Assembly (NCBI RefSeq): GCF_000179595.2
Contig: NZ_JH556657.1
Span: forward strand, 478,946-542,945
DNA: 64,000 nt
Direction of reading: 5' to 3'
Origin: Acetivibrio cellulolyticus CD2
GTDB taxonomy: Bacteria > Bacillota > Clostridia > Acetivibrionales > Acetivibrionaceae
Program-made: the position numbers and the translations under genes
The notes under the pieces: generated by a model
What the model saw: only the letters and a program-made list of their open reading frames with translations
What the model was told of the DNA's origin: nothing
The model's database searches: none
In this document: one piece after another, positions 5,901-62,536 of the stretch
Layout: each line of letters starts with the position of its first letter
Position numbering within the stretch: position 1 is the stretch's first letter

Positions 5901-7563
5901 GTGTTTTTGAATAAGCTGCAGCTACACCTACGTCATTTGTGTAATCCTTAACCTTACAGTGAAGGTTAGGATTTTCGGTCGATTTACCGGTCCATGTGTC
6001 AGGCTCTCCTGACCATTCAAGTGTTGAAGGTATTTCATATGTACCGTCACTTTTTAATTTTGTATTTGATAAAGCCCATTTAACCCATTTTTCACAGACA
6101 GGCCTTATATTTTCATCTCCTGAAAGGTAATAATATTCCATTACTCTTTCCATAGACCATGCCTGGAATCCAAACCAATTGTTGCTGGAAGGATCATGAT
6201 ATACAGGCTGGTAATCATATGCCATATCATAGAATGTGCTTTTATTCGCGGGATATTTGGAGTATTTGCCTTCCCAGCTGTTTGTTACCCCTCCTGCAAT
6301 TGCTCCTTCAGAACTTTGCAGGTATTGGTAAAGTTCAATTTGGCGACTGAGACTTTTTTTCCAATCTTCCTGTGATCCCTGTGATTTAGGCTTTAATGCA
6401 GCTTCCTGTGATAAAGCGTATGCTGCAACTGGATTTTGATAACCCTGGTGGCAATGAGAGCTTCCAATTCTCCAGCTCCATGCCCCGTTAATATCACCGC
6501 CCCAGGAGGCATACCATGATAGCAGGTAATGACAGCTGTCATAGCCTGTTCCTGCTGTTGACTTATCCTGGACTCCAATTGGTCTGAAGTATTTGTCGAA
6601 GAATGTATATCTTAAATAATCTCCCATTTTGGCAGCTTTATTGGAATAGTCGACAATTTCTCCATCCACACCCTGTTCTTTTGCCCATATATAGGCCCAG
6701 TAAGAAGCTTGAACCTGCCTTGCATCAGCATCAGAAGCAGATGTGTAACGCCATTGCTTGGAAGGCTGACCGAAACTCCCAAAGAGGCCTAAAAATCCGC
6801 CTTTTTCACCTGCACCCCATTTAAAGTCCTCCCATGCTGGATGGGGAACTGTTTCCCAAACTGATTCCTCAGCACCGCGCTGATAAGTATTAATGTAAGA
6901 GCACCTGCTTGTACCGTCACCATGGTTTCCGTATTTATAAAAATTGTCAACATCAAGCAGCCAATGCATTTGGTATATAGATTTGGAACCATATGCTGAA
7001 GCCAAGCTATCTGCTATTGGGTCGGTTCCTGTTGGAGCATTTTCACTGCCCGAAGTAGGATATTCATTGGGAGTATTTGCTTCGGGAGCAAATTGCGCAG
7101 GCTTTGCAGGCGGATATTTATCAGTTCCTGGTTGGTCACTTTGTGCATTTGGAATTATGTATTTTTCTGTTTTGTCCCAGGCATCCTTATAATATGACCA
7201 GTCCCCGGTAAGTTTAGCGTAAGTGGCACCTAGCCAGGTCATAAAGCTGAATGATTCACTTGTTGTAAGATGGCCATAGTCAGGAGCTTCCACTAATAAT
7301 GTCTCAATTGAATGATAAGGTACACCTTCTTCACTAAGGTAGCCTTTTGATTGAATGTCATTAAACAATTCCAGAAATCTGTCAGAGTATACTGTTGCAT
7401 TTGAGGATCTTGAGGATGATGCAGGAATCTTACCATTCGGAGTATTGAGGGTAGCTTTTGTACCTCTATTTTGTGCTATTAATATCGTGCATGCTACAAC
7501 TAGAGCTACCCCTAAAATAGCGGCTATCTTTTTTCTTTCTTTTAATATTCGATAAATTTTCAT
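2908..7563 (-). CDS. Bifunctional GH48-GH9-CBM3-CBM3 cellulase, non-cellulosomal
   Basis: A 1,551-aa enzyme. The start is the ATG at 7563, with GGAGGTGA nine bases upstream; a longer reading to 7638 lacks a ribosome binding site. Order: signal peptide or N-terminal anchor (about 13-31); GH48 processive cellulase (about 55-680, with the TTSESF region that carries the proposed proton donor in this family); Ser/Asn/Lys linker; GH9 (about 739-1180) with nucleophile/base region [23 protein letters not shown] and the acid in [10 protein letters not shown]; a CBM3c-like module (about 1192-1347) fused directly to GH9, as in processive endoglucanases; an Asn/Ser linker; and a C-terminal CBM3 (about 1401-1551). 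There is no dockerin, so it is secreted free. GH48 and GH9 are the classic synergistic pair: Cel9Z/Cel48Y in C. stercorarium are separate enzymes, and Caldicellulosiruptor CelA has the reverse order. A terminator lies downstream and a divergent dockerin gene upstream. Confidence 0.95.
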
Positions 7564-7663
7564 AGAATCGTCACCTCCAAACAATAATTCGCCGGAAGGG
7601 GTAGTTTTTGTATACATAAATATATATGGAGCGTGCATTTTTTAGTTTAAGGCTGATTTATTG

Positions 7664-15692: not shown

Positions 15693-15868
15693 GTGTAATA
15701 AAGAAGAAGTCATCCACTTCTCACCTTACAGATTGGTTCTGATAGGGTTAATAGTTTGAAGTTAAGTTTATTAACTTTGCTTATTAAGAGATAAGTGGAT
15801 CGGTTCTTTGATCCACTTTTTTGCGTTTGTTAACACAAGACTGTAAAATCTGCCCGGAGGTGTTTTTT
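15693..15868 (+). promoter_or_regulatory. infC leader with mutually exclusive terminator and antiterminator
   Basis: A terminator is formed by AAGTGGATC (15793-15801) and GATCCACTT (15810-15818) with a T6 run. An earlier ATCCACTT at 15712-15719 is complementary to the same left arm (15793-15800) and would act as the antiterminator. This layout matches the L20-responsive infC leaders of Firmicutes, where free L20 promotes termination. L20 binding here is inferred from gene order. Confidence 0.75.
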
Positions 15869-18345: not shown

Positions 18346-21300
18346 ATGCAAGATTACATAAATCTATATTTGATTGCTGTTCTGATTTTATTAGTTTTTA
18401 CCTTTTGGCTAATTTTTTCAAAATCTAAAGATGAAAAGATTAAAATACGTGATGCTTCACTTACAAGTGATGAACTTGAGGCACATGCAAGAGAAATGGC
18501 ATATGATCATGCTGTTTCAAAGAAACTTAATCTGTTTAATTGGCCTGTACCAAGAATGAATGAAAATTATAGATATATTTTATCTGTTTATAAAGCTTTA
18601 AATGAAGATATGCAAAAGGGGATTGGAACAACACCTGCAGCAGAGTGGCTTCTTGATAATTTTTATATTATTGAGGAGCAGGTAAAGGGTGTAAGGAAGG
18701 ATCTGACAAAGGAATATTATTCACGGCTGCCTATGCTGAGATCGGGGCAATTAAAAGGTTATGCAAGAATATATACTGTTGCCCTCGAACTTGTATCACA
18801 TACGGATGGAAGGATTGACGAAAAAGTACTTCTGAACTATATAAATGCATATCAATCCCACAATGTCCTTGCAAATAGGGAATTGTGGGCACTTGCTATA
18901 ATGATTAAGCTTGCATTGATTGAGAATATAAGATATATATGTCAAACAATAGAAGAATCTCAGAATCAAAGGCGTAAGGTTGAAGAGATTCTCTCTGCAG
19001 CAAAATGTGAAGAGGGCATAGATATTAAGAAGCTTATTCAAAACATTGAGGTTGAACTTAAGGGACAGTATCAGGTCAACTCAGCTTTTATTGAGCATTT
19101 GGCTTATAAGCTCAGGAAGATGGGAAGAGCATATTCACACGTTTTACGTCATATTGATGATATTCTTGATATAAACGGAACAAATGTGGATTCTATTACT
19201 CATAAGGAGCATAGTGAGCAGACAGTAAGGAAGGGATCAATAGGAAACTGTATAATTAGCTTGAAATTTATTTCTTCCAGTAATTGGGTGGACATTTTTG
19301 AGGCATTGAGCAAGGTAGAGGATGTTCTTAGGTCTGATCCAAATGGGACATACAATCTAATGGACCTCTCATCAAAGAACTACTATAGAAAGAGAATAGA
19401 AGAGTTAGCTCTTGATTTTGATGTTTCAGAAAAACATGTTGCAAACAAGGTTGTTGATCTGGCAACAAGGGTGTTGGAAAGTATTGAAGATAAAAACAAT
19501 GTAAAATGTAAGAGGGGTTGTCATGTAGGCTACTACATTATTGGAGAGGGATTAAAGGAACTTGAGAAGGAAATTGGCAGTAAAAAAACTTTTGCTAAAA
19601 GAATGGCAGGATTAATAAAAAGAAGTCCATTGACTCTATACATTGGATCAGTAAGTATATTGACTATTTTAATAAGTGCGCTGTTTTCCAGCTATATATT
19701 TAATGGAGTTCCTAAGTTCAAAGGTGTTCTTGCTGCAATCGGTGTTCTGGCTGTATTGGTACCTGCAACTGAAGTTTCAATAAATTTTATTAACTGGATA
19801 TTAAACCATGTATTCAAACCTTCGTTTTTTCCAAGGATTGAACTCAAGGACAGTATACCTAATGAGTATAGTACTATGGTAGTTATTCCTGCATTACTCC
19901 CGGACGAGAAGAGAGCAGTAGAACTGATTAATAATCTTGAGGTATATTATTTGTCAAACCGGGAAAATAACCTGTATTTTGCGCTTGCAGGGGACTATAA
20001 GGATTCTGCCAAAAAGGATATGGAGAATGACGGGAAGATAATTAGTGCAGCTTTAGATAGGATAAAGGAACTAAACAAGAAGTATTGCAAGGATAGTAAT
20101 GATATATTTTACTTCTTTCATAGACATAGGCAGTATAATGACAGGCAAAAAAAATGGATGGGATGGGAGAGAAAAAGAGGTGCTCTTGTTGAGTTTAACG
20201 ATATGCTTTTAGGTTCAAAGAAGACAAGCTATAGCGTAACTTCAACCAATATCTCATTGATCCCTAAGGTAAAATACGTTATTACCCTGGATGCAGACAC
20301 TATTTTACCTTTAGGTACAGCTAAAAAATTAGTAGGAACTATGGTGCATCCATTAAATTTGCCTGAAATAGATGAAGAAAAAGGGATAGTAATCAGTGGC
20401 TATGGACTTATGCAGCCGAGAATAGGTTTTGATATTGAAAGTGTTAATAAATCTCTCTTTTCCAGAATTTTTGCAGGTGAGGAGGGACGGGACCCTTATG
20501 CCAGTGCTGTGTCTGATGTTTACCAGGACTTGTTTGGTGAGGGAATCTTTACAGGTAAAGGTATTTATGATATTGACGTATTTCAAAAATTGTTGGCTAA
20601 TGCAATACCTGAAAACACAGTACTTAGCCATGACCTGCTTGAGGGGTCATACATAAGGGCTGGATTGGTAACCGATTTAGAGCTTATCGACGGATACCCG
20701 TCAAAATATAATTCCTACGCTATGAGACTTCATCGGTGGGTAAGAGGTGATTGGCAGCTTTTGCCATGGCTTAGGAATAATATTAGAAATAGGTCAGGTA
20801 AACTTGTAAAAAATCCATTATCTATGGTATCTAGATGGAAGATAATTGATAACCTCAGAAGAAGCTTGATTGCGCCTTCTCTTATATTGCTTGTTGCCCT
20901 CGGCTTTAGTATATTTCCGGGAAATACAGACTTATGGATTGGAATTTTGCTGTTTATTAACTATTTCCCGTTCATTTTGTCGGGTATAGACTATCTGGTA
21001 TATAAACCGCTTAGAGTTATACTTTCCAGAAGATATACACCGGTTATTTGCGGGTTGAAAGCGGCCTTTTTGCAGATAACATTGCAGTTTTTATTTTTGC
21101 CGTATCAGGCGTATCTTATGGTGAATGCAATAACAATTACTCTAGCTAGAGTGCTTATTACCAAAAGGAATATGCTAGAGTGGGTAACTGCCTTAGATGC
21201 TGAAAAAACCTTAAAGAACTCACTGAAAAGTTATGTAATAAAGATGAGAACAGGTGTAATTGAAGCTATTGTATTGTTGGGAATTGCATTATTGTTTAAG

Positions 21301-24300
21301 CAGCAGTCAGTTATTCCAGCTTTCATAATTTCTGTTGCATGGCTTTTGTCCCCGTTTGTTGCTTACAAGGTAAGCCGTGAAGAGATAAAAACAGTTTATC
21401 CAATAAGCAATGAAGATTTGCTCGAACTTAGAGCAGTTGCCAGAAAGACATGGAGGTACTATGAAGAGTTTGTAAACAATAAGAATAATTATCTTGCACC
21501 GGATAACTACCAGGAAGACCCGCCAAATGGTATTGCATACAGAACATCTCCAACAAATATTGGGCTTGGAATGCTGGCTGCCTTATGTGCAAGGGACTTT
21601 GGTTATATTGGTACCGATGAGATGTATAAGATTGTTAAGAGAACAGTGAGTACCATTGAGAAAATGGACAAGTGGAATGGTCATCTATACAACTGGTATG
21701 ATACACGTACGCTTAATACATTGAGACCAAGGTACATCTCCACTGTTGACAGCGGAAACTTTGTATGCTACCTCATTACTCTAAAAGAGGGGCTTATAGA
21801 GTATTTAAACAGACCTCTTATCGAAAAGGTACTTGTTAATGGAATAAAGGATACAGTCAATCTTAGCGGCAAGGAAACAGATGGAGTGTTCCTGGAAACA
21901 GATGAGCTTGACGACTTTGCTAAAAGCTTTGATGAAACAGGAAGATTTGACTTGGCCTTGTGGAGCAAAGCTTTAGACAGAATTGTACAGAACCAGAGAG
22001 ATAAGGCTAGAAAGATTAATGCCTGGAGCCGTAAAGTTGATTATATGGTGTCAAACTTTAAGGAGGAGTTAAGAAATTACTATTCCTGGAGCTATTTGCT
22101 GTTTGAAGTTCCTGAAGAATTAAAAAATGGATCCCATAAGAATGAAATTGAAAAACCGATAAAAGCTATATTTGACCTGCTGAAGGTTAATGTTGCTCTG
22201 GTAAAATTGCCGGAGCACTACAGGGTGATAAATATCGAGATAGATAAACTTAACAAGAACATTGCAAAAAATAAGGAGAGTAGTTTTGTAAATATAAAAA
22301 ATTGGCTGGACAGATTAAAGCATGAATTGGAAAAGTCGGCTCAAAATGTGGAACAGATTATTTCTAATTATCGATATTTAATTGACAGGATTGATAAAAT
22401 ATCCTGCGAAACAGAGTTTATTCATTTATATGACAATAAGAAGCAGCTTTTTTCAATAGGTTACAATATCGAAGAAAACAGTCTCACCAATTCATACTAT
22501 GATTTGCTTGCATCCGAAGCTAGACAGACGAGTTATATCGCTATTGCAAGAGGCGAAGTAGACGCACAGCATTGGTTCAAATTAGGGAGGACTCTTACCC
22601 GCATAGACCGCTATAAAGGTATGATTTCATGGAGTGGAACAATGTTTGAATATCTGATGCCTTTGCTTATAATGAAAAGTGTAAAAAACACTTTATTGGA
22701 TGAGACCTATTCGTTTGTTTTAAGGAGTCAGAAAAAATATGCAAAGCAGAGAAATGTTCCGTGGGGAACATCCGAGTCGGGATTTTATTCTTTTGATATA
22801 AAGCTTGATTATCAGTATAAGGCATTTGGAGTTCCGTGGCTTGGACTAAAAAGAGGATTGGCAGAAGATATGGTGGTAGCACCGTACTCTACTATGCTTG
22901 CTTTGCCGGTTGACCCGCATGATTCCGTCAGAAATCTAAAGAAATTGGCGGCAGAGGGAGCAAATGGACCCTATGGATACTATGAAGCGATTGATTATAC
23001 ACCTGAAAGGCTGCCAATCGGCTCTAAATACGGTATTGTAAAGAGTTATATGGCTCACCATCAGGGAATGAGCATACTGGCTCTAAATAACTATTTAAAT
23101 GGAAATATAATGCAGAGGCGTTTCCATAATGACCCCGTAGTCGATGCAGCTAAACTGCTTCTTCAGGAAAAGGTACCGACGAATATTCTCTTTACAAAGG
23201 AGAATAAGGAGAGAATACTGCCATTTACTGATGTAACCTTTGATGTAGAAGATTCCTACAGAGAATACGATATGCCGGACTATGTTTTACCTAAGGCCCA
23301 TATTTTATCAAATGGAAGCTACTCTGTAATGCTTACCGATAGGGGAACTGGATACAGCAGGAGTAATTTGTTTGATGTTACAAGGTGGAGAGAAGATATT
23401 ACCCTTGATAATTACGGAGTATTTTTTTATGTAAGGAATACCAACACTAATGAAGTCTGGTCTTCTGCCTATGCTCCTGTAAGCAAGCGACCTGATAAGT
23501 ATAAGGTGACATTTACTTCAGGGATGGCAAAATACCATAGAAAGGACGGAGACATTGACACAGTTACCGAAGTAGTTGTTAGTTCCGGTGACAATGCAGA
23601 AATAAGGCGAGTAACTTTTGTAAACCATGGAAGTGAAGCTTGTGTGCTGGAGGTCAGCAGTTATTTTGAACTTGTTTTGACACAGCATGGAGCGGATGTT
23701 GCTCATCCTGCATTCAGTAATCTTTTTATAAGAACGCAGTTTATTCCAGAATTAAACTGTCTTATAGCCAGCAGAAGACCGAGGTCAGAAAATGATAAAA
23801 CAATGTGGGCAGTAAATGTACTGACTTTGGAAGGAGAGGCTTTAGGAGGGATACAATATGAAACAGACAGGTTCAAGTTTATTGGAAGAGGTCGGGATGT
23901 ATCAGATCCTCAGGCCCTAGAACCAAGTAAACCTCTTTCAAACTCGGTTGGTGCTGTTTTAGACCCTATAATGGGGATACGCTATATGATAAGAATAGAT
24001 CCGGGAAAGACTGCAAAACTAAATTTCATAGTTGCTTTAGCTGAAAGTCGTGAAGCAGTATTGGAAATAGCATCCAAATACTCAAATCATGACATAATCC
24101 CAGAGGAATTTAATCTTGCAGCAACAAGAAGCCGTGTGGAAGCCAGGTATTTGAATCTTAAGACTTCAGAGATTGAGTTTTATCAGGAATTGATTTCTCA
24201 TATTTTGTTTATAAGTCCTGCGCAAAGGCTCAGGCAGGAGTGCATTATCAATAATACCAAAGGCCAGCCAGCATTGTGGCCGTATGGTATATCCGGAGAT

Positions 24301-27114
24301 ATACCAATAGTTTTGGTGAAATTGGAAAAGACCGATGAAATTGATATAATTTACGAAATATTAAAGGCTCATGAATACTGGAAATATAAAAACCTGAAAG
24401 TAGACCTGGTAATACTTAATGAGGAGGAAAACAGCTATACAAATCCGCTGAATGGTCTTATAGCAGATATCCTCTCTGCAAGCCATGCCCATGATATGAT
24501 AAATAAACCTGGGGGAGTATTTGTCTTAAGAGAGAGTAATCTTCCTAAGGAAGATGTTAATCTGATTTGTGCGGCAGCAAGGATAGTACTCAGCGGTAAT
24601 GCCGGGGATTTGAAGGAGCAGCTAAACGTTAAGTTAGACAATAAATTGCCTGAATTAAAGGTATATAAGGAAGTGCCTAAAGAATATGATCACAAGTCAG
24701 GTGAGGAGGTGGACCTGCAATTTTATAATGGTATTGGAGGTTTTAATAAAGATGGAAAGGAATATGAGATTTTTTTGAAAAATGGTGCTAGTACTCCTTT
24801 ACCATGGTCAAACGTAATATCTAATCCCAAATTTGGATTTCTGGTTACAGAGTCAGGTTCAGGATATACATGGCATGAAAACAGCAGGGAGAACAAGCTG
24901 ACTCCATGGTCAAACGATCCTGTATCTGATACACCGGGTGAGATAATCTATCTTTCTGACGATGCGACCGGAGAAATATGGAACATTACTCCGCTTCCTA
25001 TACGTGAAAACGGCACGTATACAGTTATACATGGATTTGGATATAGTATATTCAGGCATTCGGCGCATGGATTCGAGCAGGAATTAACTCAGTTTGTACC
25101 TGTAAATGAAAATATAAAGCTTAGTCTGGTAAAATTAAAAAATGTATCTGATTCTTCGAGAGTAATCAGTTTATACTATTATATCAGACCGGTACTTGGT
25201 GTGAATGATCAAGTGACAGCTTCACATATAAGTACCCAAAAGCATGAATCCGGCGCAATACTTATAAGAAACACATATAATGAGGAGTTTTATGGAAGAG
25301 TGGCTTTTGTTGATACTTCTGCAAAGGAAAGAACTTTTACCTGTGACAGGAAGGAATTTTTCGGAGGAAGTACTCTCTCAGATCCACCCGGAATAAGGAG
25401 GGCTAAACTAACTGAAACAGCAGGGGCTGGGTTTGACCCCTGTACAGTTATATGCTCTGTTCTTAGTTTTAAGCCTGGGGAGGAAAAAGAGATTGTTTTT
25501 ACGTTAGGTGAAGAAAAGAGTATTAAGACTGCGGAAGCATTGATTTTTAAATATAGAAAAAAAGATGAGGTAAAAAAGGCTCTTAAAGAAGTGGAGAAGT
25601 TTTGGAAGGAAAAGCTGGAAAGTCTCCAGTTTTCTACTCCAGATAGAGCCATGGATTATATGCTCAACGGATGGCTGTTATATCAAGCCCTATCATGTAG
25701 AATGTGGACCAGGACAGGATTTTATCAATCCGGTGGAGCATATGGATTCAGAGATCAATTGCAGGATTGTCTTTCAATTGCTCATATAATGCCGGAAATT
25801 ACCAGGGAGCAGATCCTTCTGCATTCAAAGCACCAGTTCGTTGAAGGTGATGTGCAGCACTGGTGGCACGAAGAAAAGTACAAAGGCACAAGGACAAGAT
25901 TTTCAGATGACCTCTTATGGATGCCGTATGTTGCTGCTGAGTATATAAGAATTACCGGTGATACAGATATACTAAAGGTAGAGACGCCATTTCTGGAAGA
26001 TGAGCCGCTGAAGGATTTTGAAGATGAGAGCTACAGGGTTCCTAGAATTTCGAACCAGATATCATCAATATATGACCACTGCATAAGAGCTATTGAAAGG
26101 TCTTTAAAATTCGGGGACCACGGCATTCCGTTAATTGGCTCGGGAGACTGGAATGATGGTATGAATACGGTTGGAAACAAGGGCAGGGGAGAAAGTGTAT
26201 GGTTGGGATGGTTTTTGTACTCAATACTTATGAAATTTGCACCTATATGCAGGGATATGGGAGAAGAAGACCGTGCCGAGAGGTATATATCAATTGCAAA
26301 AGATATCGCTAGATCTATTGAAGAGAATGCATGGGATGGCAACTGGTATAGAAGAGCATACTTTGACAATGGACATCCACTTGGTTCCATTCAAAATAGT
26401 GAATGTCAGATTGATTCTCTTGCACAATCATGGGCAGTTATATCGGGTGCAGGCGACAGGGATAGAATAAACACAGCAATGAATGCTCTGGAAAATTACC
26501 TTATCAAGAGGGATGAAGGACTTATAAAATTGCTTACTCCACCCTTTGACGAAGGTGATTTGGAACCGGGGTATATAAAAAGTTATGTTCCTGGAGTACG
26601 TGAAAATGGAGGTCAGTATACCCATGCAGCCTCCTGGGTTGTTATGGCAGTTGCTCTTTTGGGAGATGGGGATAAAGCTTCAGAATTATTTGGACTGCTA
26701 AATCCTATAAATCATGCAAAAACCTACATGGAATACTCCAAATACAAGGTAGAACCATATGTGTTGGCCGCTGATGTCTACTCGGTAGAACCTCATACCG
26801 GCAGAGGCGGTTGGACCTGGTATACCGGAGCTGCTGGCTGGATGTACAGGGTAGGCATGGAATACATTCTGGGATTTAAAAAGAACGGAGATGGTCTGTC
26901 AATTGACCCATGCATTCCAAAAGGGTGGACCGGATTTGATATTAAATACAAGTATAAGGACACTTTCTACCGTATTGCAGTAAAAAACCCTGATGGGGTA
27001 AACAAAGGCATCAGAAAGATTATTGTAGATGAAAAGGAACTTAATAGAAGCATCATTGAGCTTATTGATGATAAAAAGGAGCATAGTGTGGAAGTGATTA
27101 TGGGAAGGGAGTAA
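18346..27114 (+). CDS. Giant cyclic-glucan-synthase-like protein (GT84 + glycoamylase-like + GH94)
   Basis: A 2,922-aa membrane protein, close in length to the NdvB/ChvB/Cgs cyclic beta-1,2-glucan synthases. An N-terminal helix (about 7-25) and helices near 440-500, 855-920 and 975-1010 flank a GT84 domain. That domain has DADTILPLG (about 648-656), HDLLEGSYIRAG (about 761) and HRWVRGDWQLLPW (about 795). A glycoamylase-like domain follows (about 1400-1580; GTSESGFYSFD, SYMAHHQGMS). Then come two beta-sandwich units and a C-terminal GH94 phosphorylase-type catalytic region with GSGDWNDGMN near 2600, where the family's catalytic Asp sits. By homology it makes, cyclises and trims a beta-glucan. 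The product in a Gram-positive cellulolytic host is unknown. AGGAG precedes the ATG. Confidence 0.92.
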   Translation: MQDYINLYLIAVLILLVFTFWLIFSKSKDEKIKIRDASLTSDELEAHAREMAYDHAVSKKLNLFNWPVPRMNENYRYILSVYKALNEDMQKGIGTTPAAEWLLDNFYIIEEQVKGVRKDLTKEYYSRLPMLRSGQLKGYARIYTVALELVSHTDGRIDEKVLLNYINAYQSHNVLANRELWALAIMIKLALIENIRYICQTIEESQNQRRKVEEILSAAKCEEGIDIKKLIQNIEVELKGQYQVNSAFIEHLAYKLRKMGRAYSHVLRHIDDILDINGTNVDSITHKEHSEQTVRKGSIGNCIISLKFISSSNWVDIFEALSKVEDVLRSDPNGTYNLMDLSSKNYYRKRIEELALDFDVSEKHVANKVVDLATRVLESIEDKNNVKCKRGCHVGYYIIGEGLKELEKEIGSKKTFAKRMAGLIKRSPLTLYIGSVSILTILISALFSSYIFNGVPKFKGVLAAIGVLAVLVPATEVSINFINWILNHVFKPSFFPRIELKDSIPNEYSTMVVIPALLPDEKRAVELINNLEVYYLSNRENNLYFALAGDYKDSAKKDMENDGKIISAALDRIKELNKKYCKDSNDIFYFFHRHRQYNDRQKKWMGWERKRGALVEFNDMLLGSKKTSYSVTSTNISLIPKVKYVITLDADTILPLGTAKKLVGTMVHPLNLPEIDEEKGIVISGYGLMQPRIGFDIESVNKSLFSRIFAGEEGRDPYASAVSDVYQDLFGEGIFTGKGIYDIDVFQKLLANAIPENTVLSHDLLEGSYIRAGLVTDLELIDGYPSKYNSYAMRLHRWVRGDWQLLPWLRNNIRNRSGKLVKNPLSMVSRWKIIDNLRRSLIAPSLILLVALGFSIFPGNTDLWIGILLFINYFPFILSGIDYLVYKPLRVILSRRYTPVICGLKAAFLQITLQFLFLPYQAYLMVNAITITLARVLITKRNMLEWVTALDAEKTLKNSLKSYVIKMRTGVIEAIVLLGIALLFKQQSVIPAFIISVAWLLSPFVAYKVSREEIKTVYPISNEDLLELRAVARKTWRYYEEFVNNKNNYLAPDNYQEDPPNGIAYRTSPTNIGLGMLAALCARDFGYIGTDEMYKIVKRTVSTIEKMDKWNGHLYNWYDTRTLNTLRPRYISTVDSGNFVCYLITLKEGLIEYLNRPLIEKVLVNGIKDTVNLSGKETDGVFLETDELDDFAKSFDETGRFDLALWSKALDRIVQNQRDKARKINAWSRKVDYMVSNFKEELRNYYSWSYLLFEVPEELKNGSHKNEIEKPIKAIFDLLKVNVALVKLPEHYRVINIEIDKLNKNIAKNKESSFVNIKNWLDRLKHELEKSAQNVEQIISNYRYLIDRIDKISCETEFIHLYDNKKQLFSIGYNIEENSLTNSYYDLLASEARQTSYIAIARGEVDAQHWFKLGRTLTRIDRYKGMISWSGTMFEYLMPLLIMKSVKNTLLDETYSFVLRSQKKYAKQRNVPWGTSESGFYSFDIKLDYQYKAFGVPWLGLKRGLAEDMVVAPYSTMLALPVDPHDSVRNLKKLAAEGANGPYGYYEAIDYTPERLPIGSKYGIVKSYMAHHQGMSILALNNYLNGNIMQRRFHNDPVVDAAKLLLQEKVPTNILFTKENKERILPFTDVTFDVEDSYREYDMPDYVLPKAHILSNGSYSVMLTDRGTGYSRSNLFDVTRWREDITLDNYGVFFYVRNTNTNEVWSSAYAPVSKRPDKYKVTFTSGMAKYHRKDGDIDTVTEVVVSSGDNAEIRRVTFVNHGSEACVLEVSSYFELVLTQHGADVAHPAFSNLFIRTQFIPELNCLIASRRPRSENDKTMWAVNVLTLEGEALGGIQYETDRFKFIGRGRDVSDPQALEPSKPLSNSVGAVLDPIMGIRYMIRIDPGKTAKLNFIVALAESREAVLEIASKYSNHDIIPEEFNLAATRSRVEARYLNLKTSEIEFYQELISHILFISPAQRLRQECIINNTKGQPALWPYGISGDIPIVLVKLEKTDEIDIIYEILKAHEYWKYKNLKVDLVILNEEENSYTNPLNGLIADILSASHAHDMINKPGGVFVLRESNLPKEDVNLICAAARIVLSGNAGDLKEQLNVKLDNKLPELKVYKEVPKEYDHKSGEEVDLQFYNGIGGFNKDGKEYEIFLKNGASTPLPWSNVISNPKFGFLVTESGSGYTWHENSRENKLTPWSNDPVSDTPGEIIYLSDDATGEIWNITPLPIRENGTYTVIHGFGYSIFRHSAHGFEQELTQFVPVNENIKLSLVKLKNVSDSSRVISLYYYIRPVLGVNDQVTASHISTQKHESGAILIRNTYNEEFYGRVAFVDTSAKERTFTCDRKEFFGGSTLSDPPGIRRAKLTETAGAGFDPCTVICSVLSFKPGEEKEIVFTLGEEKSIKTAEALIFKYRKKDEVKKALKEVEKFWKEKLESLQFSTPDRAMDYMLNGWLLYQALSCRMWTRTGFYQSGGAYGFRDQLQDCLSIAHIMPEITREQILLHSKHQFVEGDVQHWWHEEKYKGTRTRFSDDLLWMPYVAAEYIRITGDTDILKVETPFLEDEPLKDFEDESYRVPRISNQISSIYDHCIRAIERSLKFGDHGIPLIGSGDWNDGMNTVGNKGRGESVWLGWFLYSILMKFAPICRDMGEEDRAERYISIAKDIARSIEENAWDGNWYRRAYFDNGHPLGSIQNSECQIDSLAQSWAVISGAGDRDRINTAMNALENYLIKRDEGLIKLLTPPFDEGDLEPGYIKSYVPGVRENGGQYTHAASWVVMAVALLGDGDKASELFGLLNPINHAKTYMEYSKYKVEPYVLAADVYSVEPHTGRGGWTWYTGAAGWMYRVGMEYILGFKKNGDGLSIDPCIPKGWTGFDIKYKYKDTFYRIAVKNPDGVNKGIRKIIVDEKELNRSIIELIDDKKEHSVEVIMGRE

Positions 27115-33944: not shown

Positions 33945-36299
33945 TTATGGCTCTGTACCACTTACTTTAGTACCGGATAAATATACTGTTACCTTAGTCC
34001 AGTCAACAAAATTTGTTGCTGACGAGTTGAAAGAATAATCGTTTGTCTGAGAGTAGTTTGACCAGTCGGATTTATTAAACCTTGAATGTATCTCTGTGCT
34101 TGCACCAGCGGCAAGACTACCTGCCCCTGAAGAGAAGCCGATTTCAAGGTAACAGTCTGCGGTTGTAGTTGGAGAACTCATACTTATGAATGACGAAGTT
34201 ATGTTTGAATTTCCAGCCATAGCATAGTCAACAGTAAATTGTTGTGAAACTGAACTGTCAGCAGTATAGTAATATCTTATTTTTACAGTTGACAGATTAA
34301 TTGGTGTTGACCCTGTATTTGTTAACTTGAACTTAGGAGTTATGCCGTTTAATGAAGAAGCTGTATTACCATTGAACATCTGTATGTTCAAGCTAGCACT
34401 GGATGAATTTGTAGATGTGGCAGCAACTGTAGGTGTAGGTGTAGCTACAGGTGTAGCTGTACGTGTAGGTGTAACTACAGGCGTAGCTGTACGTGTAGGT
34501 GTAACTACAGGTGTAGCTGTAGGTGTAGGTGTAACTACAGGTGTAGCTGTACGTGTAGGTGTAACTACAGGTGTAGCTGTACGTGTAGGTGTAGCAGTGA
34601 CGGTTGTGCCACTACCTGATGGAGGAGTACCACTATTTAAGGTTCCTGAAAGATATACTGTTACTTTATCCGTATCAGCATAGGCCGTAGCTGTTGGATT
34701 GAAGGAGTAATCGTTTGATTGATTATAATTTGACCAGTCGGATTTATTGTACCTTGCCTGTATTTCAGTACTTGAACCAGCTGCCAAAGTGCCGGCACTC
34801 GATGAGAACCCGACTTCAAAGTAACAGTCTGTTCCAGTAACTGAAGGACTAACAGTTGTAAATGTTCCAGTTATGTTCGAGCTGCCAACTGAAGCAAAGT
34901 CAACACTAAATGATTGTGAAGCTGAACTGTCCATAGTATAGTAATATCTTATTTTTACAGTTGACAGATCAATTGCAGATGAACCTATATTTGTTAATTT
35001 GAACTTAGGAGTTATTCCATTTGTTGAAGATGATGTAGTACCATTGTACATTTGAATGTTCAAGATTTTATTAGATGATTGTGAAGTAGAAGTAGCAGCA
35101 ACTGTTGAAGTAGGTGTAGCAGTTTTAGTAGGTGTAGCAGTTACTGTTGCAGTTTTAGTTGGGGTAGCAGCGGCGGTTGCGGTTACCGCAGCGGTTGCGG
35201 CACTGCCGGAAGGAATATTGCTATTCCTCTTTTCGTACAGCCAGTCTTTTACAAATTGGCCCATATGATCATTATAAGTTGAATCTCCGCTGGCATTGTT
35301 GGTCGAACCTGCAAGATCCCATGAGGAAACACGTGTTGAGAACATAACAGGTTTATAATCGTTGTCAAAAGTCCATGCGGTCCAGCTTATACCCTTGGTT
35401 TCCAAATAGTCCTTATATGCCTGACCGTAACTACTTACAGTACCTGTGGTAATTGAATCACCATCATGCTGGAATCCCCATTCAGTATTAAGGAAAGGAA
35501 CTGAATTTGCTGCATTACCGAAGTTTGCATCCCATGCACTTGACCCACCATGAGTTGGATAATAGTGAGCGTTATAAACAATGTTACCACCTGTTACAGG
35601 ACTGGTAGCAGCCTGGCCGAGGTTTTGTGACCATCTTGGTCCGCCTACGATAATGAGGTTATTAGGTGCGATCGTACGTATCATGTCTACCCAGCCCTGT
35701 GCAGTAGTTCGCCATGTGCTCCAACTATCAGGGTAAGTTGGTTCATTGAATAATTCGAATATTACATTAGGAGTATCCTTATATTTGTTTGCTATAAAAG
35801 TCCAGAATTCTCTTGTTTGTGTATCTTTATCCGTATAAGTATCAATGTAGTGCCAGTCAATTATACAGTACACTCCTTTGGCAATACATGCCTCGACAGC
35901 AGCTTTAAGATGATCGTCATAATATGAGTTGCTTGATTTACCATTATACCAGCAGTTTGTCCATCCGGCTTCACCATCAATAGCTGCTGGATAAACAGGT
36001 AGTCTGACTACTCTCGAATACCATCCGCTAGATTCATTAGTAGCCATGTTAATAAGGTCAACGGCTGTTTTGCCGCCCCTAAATGATCCCTGATGTTCAA
36101 TAGCACCGATGTCAATTAGTGATACACCTCTTAAGACTACTGTATTGCCGCCGGGGTCTTTAATGTACTTTCCGTCTACATGAAGCCAAGGAGTTGGAAT
36201 TGAAGCATTACTTGGAGATGGTGAGATAAAAATGAATCCAAAAGTGAAAAGAAAAACAAAAATGGCTAGTGCTGCAAAAATTCTTTTTGCATTTTTCAT
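33945..36299 (-). CDS. Secreted GH5 endoglucanase with two CBM3 modules
   Basis: A 784-aa enzyme. The ATG at 36299 is preferred over the one at 36305 because of its spacing from AAGGGAG. Signal peptide (about 1-32, ending SNA); GH5 catalytic domain (about 35-345) with proton donor Glu in FELFNEP (about 183) and nucleophile Glu in LNTEWGF (about 273); Ala/Thr/Pro linker; CBM3 (about 412-554); a long Thr/Pro linker with ten-residue repeats (TPVVTPTRTA type); second CBM3 (about 634-784). No dockerin is present, so it is a free cellulase that binds crystalline cellulose. The two CBM3s are clearly similar, also at DNA level, suggesting internal duplication. A c-di-GMP-I riboswitch lies in its 5' leader. 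Confidence 0.95.
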   Translation of the reverse strand: MKNAKRIFAALAIFVFLFTFGFIFISPSPSNASIPTPWLHVDGKYIKDPGGNTVVLRGVSLIDIGAIEHQGSFRGGKTAVDLINMATNESSGWYSRVVRLPVYPAAIDGEAGWTNCWYNGKSSNSYYDDHLKAAVEACIAKGVYCIIDWHYIDTYTDKDTQTREFWTFIANKYKDTPNVIFELFNEPTYPDSWSTWRTTAQGWVDMIRTIAPNNLIIVGGPRWSQNLGQAATSPVTGGNIVYNAHYYPTHGGSSAWDANFGNAANSVPFLNTEWGFQHDGDSITTGTVSSYGQAYKDYLETKGISWTAWTFDNDYKPVMFSTRVSSWDLAGSTNNASGDSTYNDHMGQFVKDWLYEKRNSNIPSGSAATAAVTATAAATPTKTATVTATPTKTATPTSTVAATSTSQSSNKILNIQMYNGTTSSSTNGITPKFKLTNIGSSAIDLSTVKIRYYYTMDSSASQSFSVDFASVGSSNITGTFTTVSPSVTGTDCYFEVGFSSSAGTLAAGSSTEIQARYNKSDWSNYNQSNDYSFNPTATAYADTDKVTVYLSGTLNSGTPPSGSGTTVTATPTRTATPVVTPTRTATPVVTPTPTATPVVTPTRTATPVVTPTRTATPVATPTPTVAATSTNSSSASLNIQMFNGNTASSLNGITPKFKLTNTGSTPINLSTVKIRYYYTADSSVSQQFTVDYAMAGNSNITSSFISMSSPTTTADCYLEIGFSSGAGSLAAGASTEIHSRFNKSDWSNYSQTNDYSFNSSATNFVDWTKVTVYLSGTKVSGTEP
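34433..34590. repeat. Five 30-bp tandem repeats coding the Thr/Pro linker of the GH5 cellulase
   Basis: Each unit codes for about ten residues of the TPVVTPTRTA type. The units are nearly identical at DNA level, including synonymous sites, pointing to recent expansion. Copy number can be expected to vary between strains. Confidence 0.9.
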
Positions 36300-36310
36300 A
36301 AACATTCTCT

Positions 36311-36352
36311 CCCTTCAAATTTCCTATACTAACAAATACTCATTTAGAAGGG
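36311..36352 (-). promoter_or_regulatory. Possible ribosome-binding-site-sequestering hairpin of the GH5 mRNA
   Basis: On the minus strand CCCTTCTAAAT (36342-36352) can pair with ATTTGAAGGG (36311-36320), leaving one bulged base. The second arm contains the AAGGG of the cellulase ribosome binding site. It lies between the c-di-GMP aptamer and the start codon, so it is a candidate expression platform working on translation. Confidence 0.5.
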
Positions 36353-36399
36353 GCAATGAAGCTTTGGAGATCATTGGAGAAAACCCAAAAAATAAAACT

Positions 36400-36491
36400 A
36401 TCATTTTCGGCAACTCGGCTGTCTTAGTCAAAGACCTTAGACCCGTAGCTTTGTGTCACTGGTTTTCACCAGGTTTACCATTTCAAATGAT
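36400..36491 (-). promoter_or_regulatory. Class I cyclic-di-GMP riboswitch (GEMM-I) upstream of the GH5 cellulase
   Basis: Read on the minus strand: P1 is ATCATTT (36485-36491) with AAATGAT (36400-36406). Then come GGTAAACC, a hairpin CTGGTGAAAACCAG with a GAAA tetraloop, TGACACAAAGCTACGGG, TCTAAGG, a second arm, and GACAGCCGAGTTGCCGAA. These are the GEMM-I landmarks: the tetraloop of one arm, its receptor in the other, the CAAAGC core, and the final GTTGCC closing P1. One base differs from the usual GACGCAAAGC (here GACACAAAGC). It starts about 14 bases after a likely transcription start and ends 101 bases before the ATG. Confidence 0.9.
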
Positions 36492-36511
36492 GTTTTGTTA
36501 ATATAGATTTC

Positions 36512-36540
36512 ATTATAGCATATTATGGAATCGATTTTAA
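36512..36540 (-). promoter_or_regulatory. Likely promoter of the GH5 cellulase transcript
   Basis: On the minus strand a perfect TATAAT (36517-36512) lies 17 bases after TTAAAA (36540-36535), a weak -35. Transcription would begin just before the riboswitch P1 stem. Confidence 0.6.
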
Positions 36541-36551
36541 TAGGCTATTAG

Positions 36552-36589
36552 TACTAGATTAGGACTCAAATACTAGATTAGGACTCAAA
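36552..36589. repeat. Two perfect 19-bp tandem repeats upstream of the GH5 promoter
   Basis: TACTAGATTAGGACTCAAA occurs twice head to tail (36552-36570 and 36571-36589), followed by TACTA. It sits just upstream of the predicted -35 of the cellulase and could be an activator or alternative sigma factor site. The rest of 36590-36910, up to the next plus-strand gene, is AT-rich with nothing recognisable. Confidence 0.75.
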
Positions 36590-36910
36590 TACTATATATG
36601 ACAAACGCTAAAGTTAAATCTATATAGCACTTAAACGTTATCTACTATATATAAAAAACATCCTTTAAATTTAGTTGGAATCATCATAAAAAAGTGTTGC
36701 TTTATTATCAAAAATGGCATATAATTACAAGTACAAAATTCAAACTATACATATTATTGTCACACCGCTCTAAGAAATTCTTTTATAAAGGTATTGGCAT
36801 TTTTTATGTTATAAGTTATAATTATTATGTAGTATGACATAAGTATAATATGAATTTACAATTAATCATATCTATGTTGTTTCGTTTGTTTAAATTTAAG
36901 GGGTGGTTTC

Positions 36911-37954
36911 ATGGATAATAAAAAAGACATTTTGAGGGTGACCATGAAAGATATTAATTTACTTCCAGAAGACATTTTAGCTGCGTCGTCAAATTCTATG
37001 GAGAAAAGAAGAACTCAAAGCGAAGTTAATGAAAGTGAGAAAGTTACTAACGAGTCTGACTCTAAAGTTCCGCCTGCACAATCGGAAAAGAGTAAGGAAG
37101 GCGTAGTAACACTTTCTAAAACCTTAAAAGATAATCTGATAGATAGTATACATCAGAATTCTGACAGGGCTACTAGTTTTTTGAATTCATTAAAGAAGGA
37201 TAAAATTAGAAATCTTGAAAGGATTTTAGGTGTTGACAAAAAGGATTTATCTTTTTCAAACAAAAAGAATTATATTTACAGTACAGGTTCTGGAAGGATG
37301 GTTATAATAGACCGTGATATCTGGGGAGAACCATGCACCGTTACCGTTAAAGAAGCTAATGACGTTGCAATAAGACGTGTCAAGTTTTTTGAGGATGAAC
37401 CATTCTTGTTCCCGGTATTTAATGAAAAGAATTTGACTGGCGATGTTATACATATGGATGATAATGAAATTTGGTATTTGTATAAAGATGAAGCAACTAT
37501 CGTTTTATTTAAAAATGATAAACCAGATTTCCTTAAAGTATCCCTTAAAAATTTTAAGAATATAAATAACAAAAAAGCTTTACATACCTATTTGGATAGC
37601 TCTAAGATGCTTTATCTTGATAAGAAACTACATGCGCTATTAATTGAAGATAGAAATATTCAAGTTGAGGATATAATTAAAATAAGAGCTGGGTATGCAG
37701 TGTATAAAAATACCAGCAGGACATATAAAGTGTTGTTGTTTGATGAGTTCAGACAATTGTATGATGAGTTTACATTCAGTAAGCTTCCTTCAGTTAGGGA
37801 AGATGGTTGGGATGTGTTGTTTTCTAAGGATATAGTTGATTATGTAAAAGCAAACAATTATTCCTTTGAGAATTTCAGACAGGATGACGGGCACATAGAG
37901 TATTGGCAAAATATTGGGGCAAAAAGAGTTTGTGTTTTAAGATGTAAAATTTAA
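36911..37954 (+). CDS. Unrecognised 347-aa protein
   Basis: I do not recognise this protein. AAGGGGTGG lies upstream of the ATG. Residues about 1-75 are hydrophilic and Ser/Glu/Lys-rich and probably disordered. From about residue 115 it looks like a folded beta-rich cytoplasmic domain with repeated strand-turn elements (IYSTGSGRMVIIDRDIW, GDVIHMDDNEIWYLYKDEA). It ends in a Trp-containing region (EYWQNIGAKRVCVLRC). No signal peptide, membrane segment or catalytic motif is seen. It stands alone between the divergent cellulase gene and a terminator. Confidence 0.6.
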   Translation: MDNKKDILRVTMKDINLLPEDILAASSNSMEKRRTQSEVNESEKVTNESDSKVPPAQSEKSKEGVVTLSKTLKDNLIDSIHQNSDRATSFLNSLKKDKIRNLERILGVDKKDLSFSNKKNYIYSTGSGRMVIIDRDIWGEPCTVTVKEANDVAIRRVKFFEDEPFLFPVFNEKNLTGDVIHMDDNEIWYLYKDEATIVLFKNDKPDFLKVSLKNFKNINNKKALHTYLDSSKMLYLDKKLHALLIEDRNIQVEDIIKIRAGYAVYKNTSRTYKVLLFDEFRQLYDEFTFSKLPSVREDGWDVLFSKDIVDYVKANNYSFENFRQDDGHIEYWQNIGAKRVCVLRCKI

Positions 37955-52294: not shown

Positions 52295-52369
52295 GCCACT
52301 GTGGCTCAGGGGTAGAGCAATTCACTCGTAATGAATAGGTCGAGGGTTCGATTCCCTCCAGTGGCTCCA
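52295..52369 (+). tRNA. tRNA-Thr (anticodon CGT)
   Basis: A 75-base tRNA with CCA encoded. The acceptor GCCACTG pairs with CAGTGGC. Anticodon stem ATTCA/TGAAT closes the loop CTCGTAA, giving anticodon CGT (codon ACG, Thr). T-arm is GAGGGTTCGATTCCCTC. It is the insertion target of the genomic island: its 3' part from 52312 is also present as the right att site. Confidence 0.95.
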
Positions 52370-52498: not shown

Positions 52499-53752
52499 TT
52501 AAGCCTTTTTACTCATTTTCTTCTTCGGGGTCAATATACTTTCCATCATATCAGTTGCTTGTTTATCGGCTGTCTGAAGAGCGTGAGCGTAAATATTCAT
52601 AGTGGTTGATGTGTTTGCATGTCCTAATCGGCTTGATACTGCTCTAACATTAAGACCTTTGTGAATCAACAATGTGGCTGCAGTATGGCGTAAGCAATGA
52701 AATTTTATTACCGGCAGCAAGTACTTTTCTTTTTGATTTTTTGGTATGTTTTTGTCTGAGTGCACTTTTTCATTATAGTCCTCAAGGAACTTCTTAAACC
52801 ACTTTGTGGGGGTGTCTGGATGCATTATTTCGCCATTCAATTGTGTAAATACCCAGTCATCACCTTTCCATTGATCGCCCGACTCCAATCTCTCCTGGGA
52901 CTGGAATTGCTTATACGATTTAAGCAGATCTTTTACTGATGAAGGAATTGCAATTTTTCTCAATGAACTTTTAGTCTTTGGCTCTTTTATAGATACGCCT
53001 TTTCCAGGGACATACTGAGCCGAGTATCTAACGTCAATAATACAGTTCTTTAGATCAACATTTTCCCATTTTAGTGCGACTAATTCGCCACGCCTTAAAC
53101 CTGTGACAGTTCCTAGTAAAACAAGGACCTTATATTTTAACTGTTCACTTTCTAATGTCTCTAATAATAAGGCTGTTTTTTCTTCATCAAAAGTTCCAGC
53201 TTCCTTTTTTCTTACCTTTGGAGGTTTAACCCTGGAGGCAGGATTTGAGATAATAAGTTGCCATTGCATTGCATCCTGAAGGATACTTGAAATTATCCTG
53301 TGATATTTCTGTATTGTGGGTTCAGATAAAGTATCTCCCTTACCATCTTGCCTTATGCCAGGCTCTGCTAAGTTGTTATAAAATTCTATTAAGTGGTTCG
53401 GCTGAATTCTATCAAGCTTTAGATGACCTAAAGTCGGTATGATTCGGTTATTCAACATGATTTTATAACAGTGTAGTTTTTTGGGTTCAAGTTGCTTTTC
53501 TGCATAATCAATAACCCAGCGATCAATGAACTCTTTAAAGGTTATCTTACCAGTGTCTAAGTATGTACCGTTTTTAACTTCATCTTCAAAAAGTGTTGCT
53601 TGTCGCTGCAGTTCCTTCTCAATTTGTTTGGGCGTCATTCCTGGATCCAATGTGATTGACTTACGTTTTTTATCTTTCTTTCCAGTATAGTCGGTTCCGT
53701 TGGTTACTGTTATACGGTAGCTGTTATTACCGCGTTTTTCAATACTTGCCAT
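52499..53752 (-). CDS. int: Tyrosine recombinase, integrase of the tRNA-Thr island
   Basis: A 417-aa phage/ICE-type integrase. It has an N-terminal AP2-like arm-binding domain (about 1-60), a SAM-like core-binding domain (about 65-180) and a catalytic domain (about 195-400). The catalytic residues are visible: Arg in TGLRRGE, HxxR as HCLRHTA, a GHANTSTT segment with the second His, and nucleophile Tyr in MNIYAHA. AGGAGG precedes its ATG. It sits right beside attL, as is usual. It appears intact and is preceded by a small Cys-rich protein gene. Confidence 0.95.
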   Translation of the reverse strand: MASIEKRGNNSYRITVTNGTDYTGKKDKKRKSITLDPGMTPKQIEKELQRQATLFEDEVKNGTYLDTGKITFKEFIDRWVIDYAEKQLEPKKLHCYKIMLNNRIIPTLGHLKLDRIQPNHLIEFYNNLAEPGIRQDGKGDTLSEPTIQKYHRIISSILQDAMQWQLIISNPASRVKPPKVRKKEAGTFDEEKTALLLETLESEQLKYKVLVLLGTVTGLRRGELVALKWENVDLKNCIIDVRYSAQYVPGKGVSIKEPKTKSSLRKIAIPSSVKDLLKSYKQFQSQERLESGDQWKGDDWVFTQLNGEIMHPDTPTKWFKKFLEDYNEKVHSDKNIPKNQKEKYLLPVIKFHCLRHTAATLLIHKGLNVRAVSSRLGHANTSTTMNIYAHALQTADKQATDMMESILTPKKKMSKKA

Positions 53753-62386: not shown

Positions 62387-62457
62387 AATAAAAATGGGCA
62401 AAAGTTGCAGATGTAGTAATATGAACGAGTGCAACACTTTACCCAAGTTTACAATAA

Positions 62458-62536
62458 GTAGAGCAATTCACTCGTAATGAATAGGTCGAGGGTTCGATTC
62501 CCTCCAGTGGCTCCACACTAAAAGTCTGAAACTTAA
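62458..62536 (+). repeat. attR: right copy of the 79-bp att repeat
   Basis: It carries the tRNA-Thr 3' part without its 5' half, so it is not a working tRNA. It is identical to 52312-52390 and marks the right end of the island. Confidence 0.92.

What the first reader, a model, noticed from the sequence alone, without database searches (positions are those of the whole stretch)
36400..36491. c-di-GMP-I riboswitch controls a secreted cellulase
The minus strand upstream of the GH5-CBM3-CBM3 gene shows the GEMM-I landmarks: GAAA tetraloop arm, CAAAGC core, receptor arm, GTTGCC and a closing P1. It lies just after a likely start site. Direct second-messenger control of a cellulase would link cellulose breakdown to the attached lifestyle. 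The core has GACACAAAGC instead of the usual GACGCAAAGC, which may alter ligand preference.
Basis: partly seen in the sequence, partly recalled or inferred. Interest (0 to 1): 0.8.

Follow-up and report, generated by a model that had tools for sequence, protein, structure and literature searches.

The report
c-di-GMP riboswitch before a cellulase gene
A genuine RNA sensor for the bacterial signal c-di-GMP sits in front of a secreted cellulose-degrading enzyme gene, and its predicted folding suggests the signal switches enzyme production off rather than on.

Summary
In detail: Rfam's c-di-GMP-I model matches 36489-36406 (-) full length at 80.5 bits, cut-off 35, about 100 nt before a secreted GH5-CBM3-CBM3 gene, in a genome with 22 GGDEF matches over the cut-off. 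The 'GACAC' core is a compensated base pair (C-G to U-A), shared by 8 other aptamers of 125 parsed; none of the 125 is mismatched there, and position G20 is kept. No terminator-like site was found. The transcript's 5' end can pair with the stretch just before the ribosome-binding site, excluding P1 (-17.3 kcal/mol; 0 of 2000 shuffles of either strand as good). Modelled ligand lowers ribosome-site accessibility from 0.75 to 0.12; 0 of 400 linker shuffles match this. The prediction is sensitive to the unknown start site: weak at 36504, gone at 36502, weak from a second candidate promoter. In the 14 family genomes held, no other aptamer precedes a cellulase. In passing: stand-alone c-di-GMP RNAs of three subtypes, in 13 of 14 family genomes.

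The parts
36512..36540 (-). candidate promoter: -35 TTAAAA (36540-36535), 17-nt spacer, -10 TATAAT (36517-36512) with TG before it
   Evidence: 10 of 12 consensus matches; a second minus-strand site with 10 of 12 lies at 36711-36683
36481..36505 (-). leader strand (anti-P1) that can pair with 36350-36324 and contains the 5' strand of P1; transcription start inferred at about 36505-36504
   Evidence: RNAduplex -17.3 kcal/mol; 0 of 2000 linker shuffles and 0 of 2000 leader shuffles as good; start site inferred from -10 spacing
36400..36491 (-). c-di-GMP-I (GEMM-I) aptamer with 7-bp P1; Rfam match 36489-36406
   Evidence: 80.5 bits, gathering score 35
36394..36406 (-). 3' strand of the extended P1 (AAAUGAUAGUUUU)
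   Evidence: folds
36324..36350 (-). linker strand complementary to the leader; mostly in the loop of the SD-sequestering hairpin
36347..36352 (-). anti-SD CCCUUC, pairs with GAAGGG 36316-36311 in the P1-formed fold
   Evidence: anti-SD pairing with the linker is not better than shuffles (736 of 2000 as good)
36307..36316 (-). Shine-Dalgarno region GAAGGGAGAG
   Evidence: read directly; spacing favours the ATG at 36299 over the one at 36305
33945..36305 (-). secreted GH5-CBM3-CBM3 enzyme, 786 aa, N-terminal signal peptide by eye, no dockerin or SLH domain reported

Best explanation
A canonical c-di-GMP-I aptamer in the 5' leader of a free secreted GH5-CBM3-CBM3 cellulase works as a translational OFF switch. 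Shown by calculation: aptamer, gene, G20, compensated U-A pair, a candidate promoter, no terminator-like site, and a statistically unusual leader-linker complementarity that excludes P1. Inferred: without ligand the leader pairs with 36350-36324, which opens the ribosome-binding site; with c-di-GMP the aptamer holds P1, the linker is released and the CCCUUC/GAAGGG hairpin hides the ribosome-binding site. The cell would then make this dockerin-less cellulase mainly when c-di-GMP is low, as a foraging or detachment enzyme, much as C. difficile makes the protease PPEP-1.
For: Aptamer. Gene. Candidate promoter and no terminator-like site. Ligand is probably made: 22 GGDEF matches over the cut-off. 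G20 kept, U-A pair compensated. Leader-linker duplex -17.3 kcal/mol; 0 of 2000 linker shuffles (best -17.0) and 0 of 2000 leader shuffles (best -14.8) as good. At 234 nt a P1 bonus of -2 kcal/mol gives about half switching and -4 gives P1 0.95. Accessibility falls from 0.75 to 0.12 at lengths 215 and 234; 0 of 400 linker shuffles reach this at either length (3 and 1 of 400 exceed a drop of 0.5), and 0 of 400 give an ON switch of 0.5 or more. Starts from 36560 to 36505 keep the switch at most 3' ends tried. Passages of two reviews: the seven functional class I switches of C. difficile are uniformly OFF (PMC6366702), and PPEP-1 is a secreted enzyme under one (PMC11477304).
Against: The start site is unmapped and matters: at 36504, the likeliest purine, the drop is 0.45 to 0.12; at 36503 it is 0.21 to 0.12; at 36502 and later there is none. 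From the second candidate promoter (start near 36676) it is only about 0.35 to 0.18, or absent at one 3' end. Some 3' ends favour P1 without ligand (225 nt: P1 0.71 from 36505, 0.91 from 36504). The whole leader does not fold unusually well (z -0.91; 38 of 200 shuffles as good), and the anti-SD pairing alone is ordinary (736 of 2000). I found no relative with this gene and leader, so there is no covariation test of the platform. B. thuringiensis has a class I ON switch, and the two V. cholerae class I switches respond in opposite directions (passage).
Confidence: 0.53

Rival explanations
1. ON switch: c-di-GMP turns the cellulase on, coupling cellulose breakdown to attachment.
For: Class I ON switches exist (B. 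thuringiensis Bc2, passage); attachment to cellulose would fit enzyme production.
Against: In the modelled states with P1 held, the ribosome-binding site is mostly hidden (0.09-0.31 unpaired), and no modelled start or length gave a clear rise with ligand. No terminator-like site was found.
Confidence: 0.16
2. The aptamer binds c-di-GMP but hardly controls the gene (start elsewhere, or a decayed platform), with control at the promoter instead.
For: With starts at 36502 or later the ribosome-binding site is hidden with and without ligand, and from the upstream candidate promoter the effect is small. Perfect 19-bp direct repeats lie just upstream of the -35.
Against: Leader-linker complementarity is far beyond shuffles, and the aptamer itself is intact at 80.5 bits.
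Confidence: 0.25
3. The variant core makes it a cGAMP or relaxed cyclic-dinucleotide sensor.
For: The core reads GACACAAAGC rather than GACGCAAAGC; 3 of the 8 other aptamers with the U-A pair have A at position 20.
Against: The change is a compensated pair, and position 20 is G here.
Confidence: 0.06

Closest known systems
c-di-GMP-I (GEMM-I) riboswitch, Rfam RF01051
   Same: Whole aptamer at 80.5 bits, P1/P2/P3, GAAA loop, G20, upstream of a secreted-protein gene
   Different: One core pair is U-A in place of C-G; the gene is a cellulase; no terminator-like site in the platform
V. cholerae Vc2 (translational OFF class I switch, passage of PMC9262584)
   Same: Class I aptamer, proposed control of translation by P1
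   Different: Here the competing strand is the transcript's own 5' end pairing with the stretch before the ribosome-binding site (model)
C. difficile class I switch of PPEP-1 (passages of PMC6366702 and PMC11477304)
   Same: Secreted enzyme predicted to be made at low c-di-GMP
   Different: Protease acting on own adhesins; the C. difficile class I switches work by transcription termination
Class I switch before a GH18-CBM5/12 gene in a genome of another family of the order (L168)
   Same: c-di-GMP-I aptamer before a secreted polysaccharide hydrolase
   Different: Probable chitinase, with an intrinsic-terminator-like site
Vibrio gbpA and tfoX class I switches (recalled, no call)
   Same: Link to insoluble polysaccharide (chitin)
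   Different: Binding protein and regulator, not a hydrolase

Membership tests
c-di-GMP-I riboswitch RF01051 | covariance-model score above Rfam's gathering score | tested here: met
   80.5 bits against 35, full length, the one kept of its clan
c-di-GMP-I riboswitch RF01051 | P1, GAAA-capped P2 and P3 around the junction | tested here: met
   alignment; 7-bp P1 read; folds
c-di-GMP-I riboswitch RF01051 | G at the position equivalent to Vc2 G20 | tested here: met
   importance from passages; mapping to Rfam column 11 partly recalled
c-di-GMP-I riboswitch RF01051 | core pair C22-G45 or an equivalent standard pair | tested here: met
   U-A here; 116 C-G and 9 U-A (window included) among 125 parsed of 127; Vc2 numbering recalled
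c-di-GMP-I riboswitch RF01051 | binds c-di-GMP | not testable with these tools
   needs in-line probing
c-di-GMP-I riboswitch RF01051 | ligand-dependent control of the downstream gene | tested here: inconclusive
   fold model gives OFF for some start sites and little or nothing for others
GEMM-Ib / cGAMP-sensing variant | A at position 20 | tested here: not met
   G here
transcription-terminating platform | intrinsic terminator between aptamer and start codon | tested here: not met
   0 terminator-like sites in 36250-36950
GH5 cellulase | GH5 profile and the two catalytic glutamates (NEP, TE) | tested here: met
   PF00150 138.9 bits; FNEPT and NTEWG align with FNEPT and ATEIG of Cel5C 8bn7; that these are the catalytic motifs is recalled
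GH5 cellulase | activity on cellulose | not testable with these tools
   inferred from GH5 plus two CBM3

The most novel reading that the evidence does not exclude
A free cellulase whose GH5 domain has no close relative in the class sample is translated only when c-di-GMP is low, by a leader in which the transcript's own 5' end competes with P1. It would belong to a c-di-GMP RNA regulon that also includes three subtypes of family-conserved stand-alone c-di-GMP RNAs with C-rich 5' ends that could pair with ribosome-binding sites, that is, second-messenger-gated small RNAs. The link between the stand-alone RNAs and the cellulase is speculation.
Probability: 0.28. Interest if true: 0.78.

Novelty: new member of a known kind. 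Interest (0 to 1): 0.5.

Why it matters
None of the papers listed by my searches, judged by title and opening of the abstract, reports c-di-GMP riboswitch control of a cellulase. Those lists were often capped (20 of 22, 15 of 196, 12 of 156, 12 of 17, 12 of 5,186) and the library lacks most subscription journals, so this is no proof of novelty. If true, a cellulose degrader sets one of its free cellulases directly by its lifestyle signal, and the predicted sign (repression by c-di-GMP) is the reverse of the simple 'attach and digest' idea and can be tested with one reporter.

Tried and rejected
Ligand change through GACAC: not supported, with the reservation that 3 of the 8 other U-A aptamers carry A20. 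Transcription terminator: none found. c-di-GMP-II in the genome: no match, but nothing rang in the controls either, so absence is not proven. Orthologues: the GH5 domain has no match at E up to 1e-30 in 390 other genomes of the class (a weaker match, E 1.1e-28, 34% identity, exists in G005); the nearest relatives in one scan of species genomes are Chloroflexota, cyanobacterial and Burkholderiales contigs, 38-59% identity over the best segment, and none of those seven loci has an Rfam match at the gathering score. In the 40-genome search the listed matches (a capped list) were mainly to the CBM3 part. A leader peptide in the stand-alone RNAs: frames from the aptamer ATG run 9-47 codons, 24 of 32 are 9 or 10, with GGAG-ATG spacing of 12-16 nt; not favoured, not excluded.

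Analysis errors replaced: one search failed (file name) and was redone; the 'P1 forbidden' folds left the leader unpaired by mistake and are superseded; the pair tally used a faulty pattern and is superseded (2 of 127 rows unparsed and left out). The 127 aptamers are all 69 of the family search plus 58 from other families; not all hits, itself a capped list, were fetched. Alignment A1 holds 30 of the 32 stand-alone RNAs; I left out G002:C1:1652143 and G001:C55:37231, which carry longer 3' inserts.

Full report
The site. cmscan against Rfam 15 gives four matches in the window at the gathering scores. The strongest is c-di-GMP-I at 36489-36406 on the minus strand, 80.5 bits against a gathering score of 35, all 87 model positions.

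The gene. The ORF 36305-33945 (-) codes 786 residues: an N-terminal signal sequence (by eye), a GH5 domain (PF00150, 138.9 bits) and two CBM3 stretches (165.1 bits); no dockerin, cohesin or SLH domain was reported. The best match of its catalytic part among solved structures is Cel5C (8bn7), with the FNEPT and TE motifs aligned. The spacing of the GAAGGGAGAG ribosome-binding site favours the second ATG at 36299. The GH5 domain looks like a stranger in its class: 1 of 391 genomes, the own one, matches at E up to 1e-30 (a weaker match in G005, E 1.1e-28), while the relatives found in one scan are Chloroflexota, cyanobacterial and Burkholderiales contigs, none with an Rfam match. The CBM3 modules do resemble modules common in the own genome and family. 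A gene of foreign origin that gained local modules and a riboswitch leader is therefore plausible, but this is inference.

In the Rfam alignment the C of GGCAAA pairs with the first G of GCAAAG. Here both changed: GGUAAA and ACAAAG. Among 127 aptamers from the order (all 69 family hits plus 58 of other families), 125 could be parsed: 116 C-G and 9 U-A at this pair (the window's and 8 others), none mismatched. The position equivalent to Vc2 G20, reported as a selectivity factor between cyclic dinucleotides (passage of PMC9262584; a G20A mutant is studied with cGAMP in passages of PMC6274999), is G here. It is A in 14 of the 125, including 3 of the 8 other U-A aptamers and 11 of the 116 C-G ones. 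For this aptamer there is no sign of a changed ligand. The ligand should be available: 22 GGDEF matches over the cut-off and one below it.

How it may work. A sigma-70-type promoter-like site ends at 36512, which puts the start at about 36505-36504. No terminator-like site lies between aptamer and gene. The 5' end of such a transcript (36505-36481), which contains the 5' strand of P1, is complementary to 36350-36324, just before the ribosome-binding site: RNAduplex -17.3 kcal/mol; linker shuffles mean -6.3, best -17.0; leader shuffles mean -6.4, best -14.8; 0 of 2000 and 0 of 2000 as good. That duplex and P1 exclude each other. In the free RNA of 234 nt P1 has probability 0.03 and the ribosome-binding site is 0.75 unpaired; a bonus on P1 standing for ligand shifts this to 0.12, with half switching near -2 kcal/mol. 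Of 400 RNAs with a shuffled linker, 0 reached the observed drop at either of two lengths (3 and 1 exceeded a drop of 0.5), and 0 showed an ON switch of 0.5 or more. Hence a translational OFF switch is the best-supported prediction.

Limits of that model. It depends on the start site: starts at 36511-36505 give the switch, 36504 a weaker one (0.45 to 0.12), 36503 little (0.21 to 0.12), 36502 and later none. Longer leaders starting at 36560 or 36530 keep it (0.74-0.85 to 0.16-0.31), but from 36600 and from the start expected of the second candidate promoter (about 36676) the drop is small or absent. At a 3' end of 225 nt the free RNA from 36505 prefers P1 (0.71). The whole leader is not unusually stable (z -0.91; 38 of 200 shuffles as good), and the anti-SD pairing alone is matched by 736 of 2000 shuffles. 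I found no relative with this gene and leader, so covariation cannot test it. The steps 'binds c-di-GMP', 'changes fold' and 'changes cellulase amount' are all inferred.

Biological reading. The review passages seen say that the seven functional class I switches of C. difficile are uniformly OFF (PMC6366702) and that PPEP-1, a secreted protease that frees cells when c-di-GMP falls, is under one of them (PMC11477304). A free, dockerin-less cellulase made at low c-di-GMP fits the same pattern: an enzyme for roaming or leaving, not for the attached state.

Surroundings in the genome and family. The own genome has six c-di-GMP-I matches. In the 14 family genomes held there are 69 (one, G002:C1:4285042, is below the cut-off). 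I sort them by flanks and downstream sequence, mostly by eye, into 32 stand-alone RNAs, 28 in tandem pairs before one kind of small secreted protein gene (14 of 14 genomes, judged by similar N-termini; Pfam-tested within the family only in the own genome, where it is transglutaminase-like), and nine others, of which the window's is the only one before a cellulase. Outside the family I looked at the genes behind 47 further aptamers: 43 had a sense ORF of at least 70 codons starting within 700 nt, and BLASTP with the window's GH5 and CBM3 parts found none among those at E 0.01. Pfam on 18 of the 43 found one GH18-CBM5/12 protein, one carbohydrate-esterase-like protein, a subtilase, a papain-like protease, three proteins with transglutaminase cores, five with HD, EAL or GGDEF domains, a chemotaxis-type, a FapA-type and a copper-amine-oxidase-N protein and one with fn3 and GLUG repeats; two had no match. 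Control of secreted hydrolases by this aptamer thus recurs but is not common.

A second result, outside the window. The 32 stand-alone RNAs share about 215 nt: a C-rich 5' tract, GGUAUAAGGAG, the aptamer, CCAUUAAAAGUUCUGUUUAU, and UUUCCUUAUACC followed by U residues. GGUAUAAGGAG and its complement are invariant in the 30 aligned copies, so pairing is suggested by complementarity only. All 32 have a TATAAT or TACAAT within the stretch upstream (position not restricted, so some may be chance). The 5' tract comes in three forms, A (11 copies), B (8) and C (13), never more than one of each per genome; G011, a 55% complete genome, had none. In the own genome all three lie convergent to the next gene. 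A covariance model finds the same RNA in five genomes of a second family (11 copies, 145-201 bits), one more at 125.4 bits in a third, then a gap; the 88.7-bit match in G008 is a type A copy whose aptamer is missing while promoter side, C-rich tract and outer strands remain. I read these as c-di-GMP-gated small RNAs that may pair with ribosome-binding sites; nothing here tests that. Precedents seen in passages: in C. difficile two class I switches control antitoxin RNAs, and one is listed as an orphan (PMC11477304); RCd5 is listed with the GEMM motif (PMC3649979).

Verdict. A real riboswitch and a new member of a known kind, with an unusual target gene and a testable, counter-intuitive sign. 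Organism: the genome size of 6.16 Mb and family members with the genome lengths of C. thermocellum ATCC 27405 and C. clariflavum (lengths recalled) suggest an Acetivibrio close to A. cellulolyticus; this is inference from recall.

Noticed in passing
own genome: L015:4654-4870 (+), L016:13832-14053 (-), L017:13978-14199 (-); 32 copies in 13 of 14 family genomes: Stand-alone RNAs of about 215 nt built around a c-di-GMP-I aptamer, with a -10-like box, C-rich 5' tract, invariant complementary outer strands and U tract, and no sense gene directly behind them in the own genome; three 5' subtypes, at most one of each per genome.
   Followed up: partly
L187-L197: The same RNA class in five genomes of a second family of the order, 11 copies, 145-201 bits with model R1.
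   Followed up: partly
L186 (G008:C1:1394667-1394791): A type A copy in which the aptamer is cleanly missing while the C-rich tract and outer strands remain: a natural aptamer-free version.
   Followed up: no
L014:5931-6189 (+) and 26 further family aptamers: Tandem c-di-GMP-I pairs before a small secreted gene in 14 of 14 family genomes (28 aptamers); in the own genome the product is transglutaminase-like, the second aptamer's 3' end runs into the ribosome-binding site, and the gene lies beside two cohesin-SLH genes on the other strand.
   Followed up: partly
L089, L106, L148, L178, L154, L158, L160, L163, L200, L201 and the second tandem aptamers of G001, G003, G009, G011: 14 of 125 parsed aptamers have A at the G20 position, the change linked to cGAMP recognition; those of L089 and L106 lie about 2.3 kb upstream of serine-recombinase-like genes (by eye).
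   Followed up: no
L168: c-di-GMP-I aptamer plus terminator-like hairpin before a GH18-CBM5/12 gene in another family.
   Followed up: partly
window 36552-36589: Two perfect 19-bp direct repeats just upstream of the -35 of the cellulase's candidate promoter, and an 84% inverted repeat (36501-36519 with 36607-36625) over the -10 region: possible regulator sites.
   Followed up: no
window 52295-52369 and 62446-62504: tRNA-Thr (CGT) followed by a phage-type integrase gene (52499-53752, -) and, 10 kb on, a partial copy of the tRNA: looks like an integrated element with transposase-like genes inside.
   Followed up: no
window 2908-7638 (-): One 1576-aa protein with GH48, GH9 and CBM3 domains.
   Followed up: no
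window 18346-27114 (+): 2922-aa protein with GH94 supersandwich, GH94 catalytic and glucoamylase-like domains; resembles a cyclic beta-glucan synthase (name recalled).
   Followed up: no
window 15695-15830 (+): L20 ribosomal protein leader, 63.0 bits, only just above its cut-off of 58.7.
   Followed up: no
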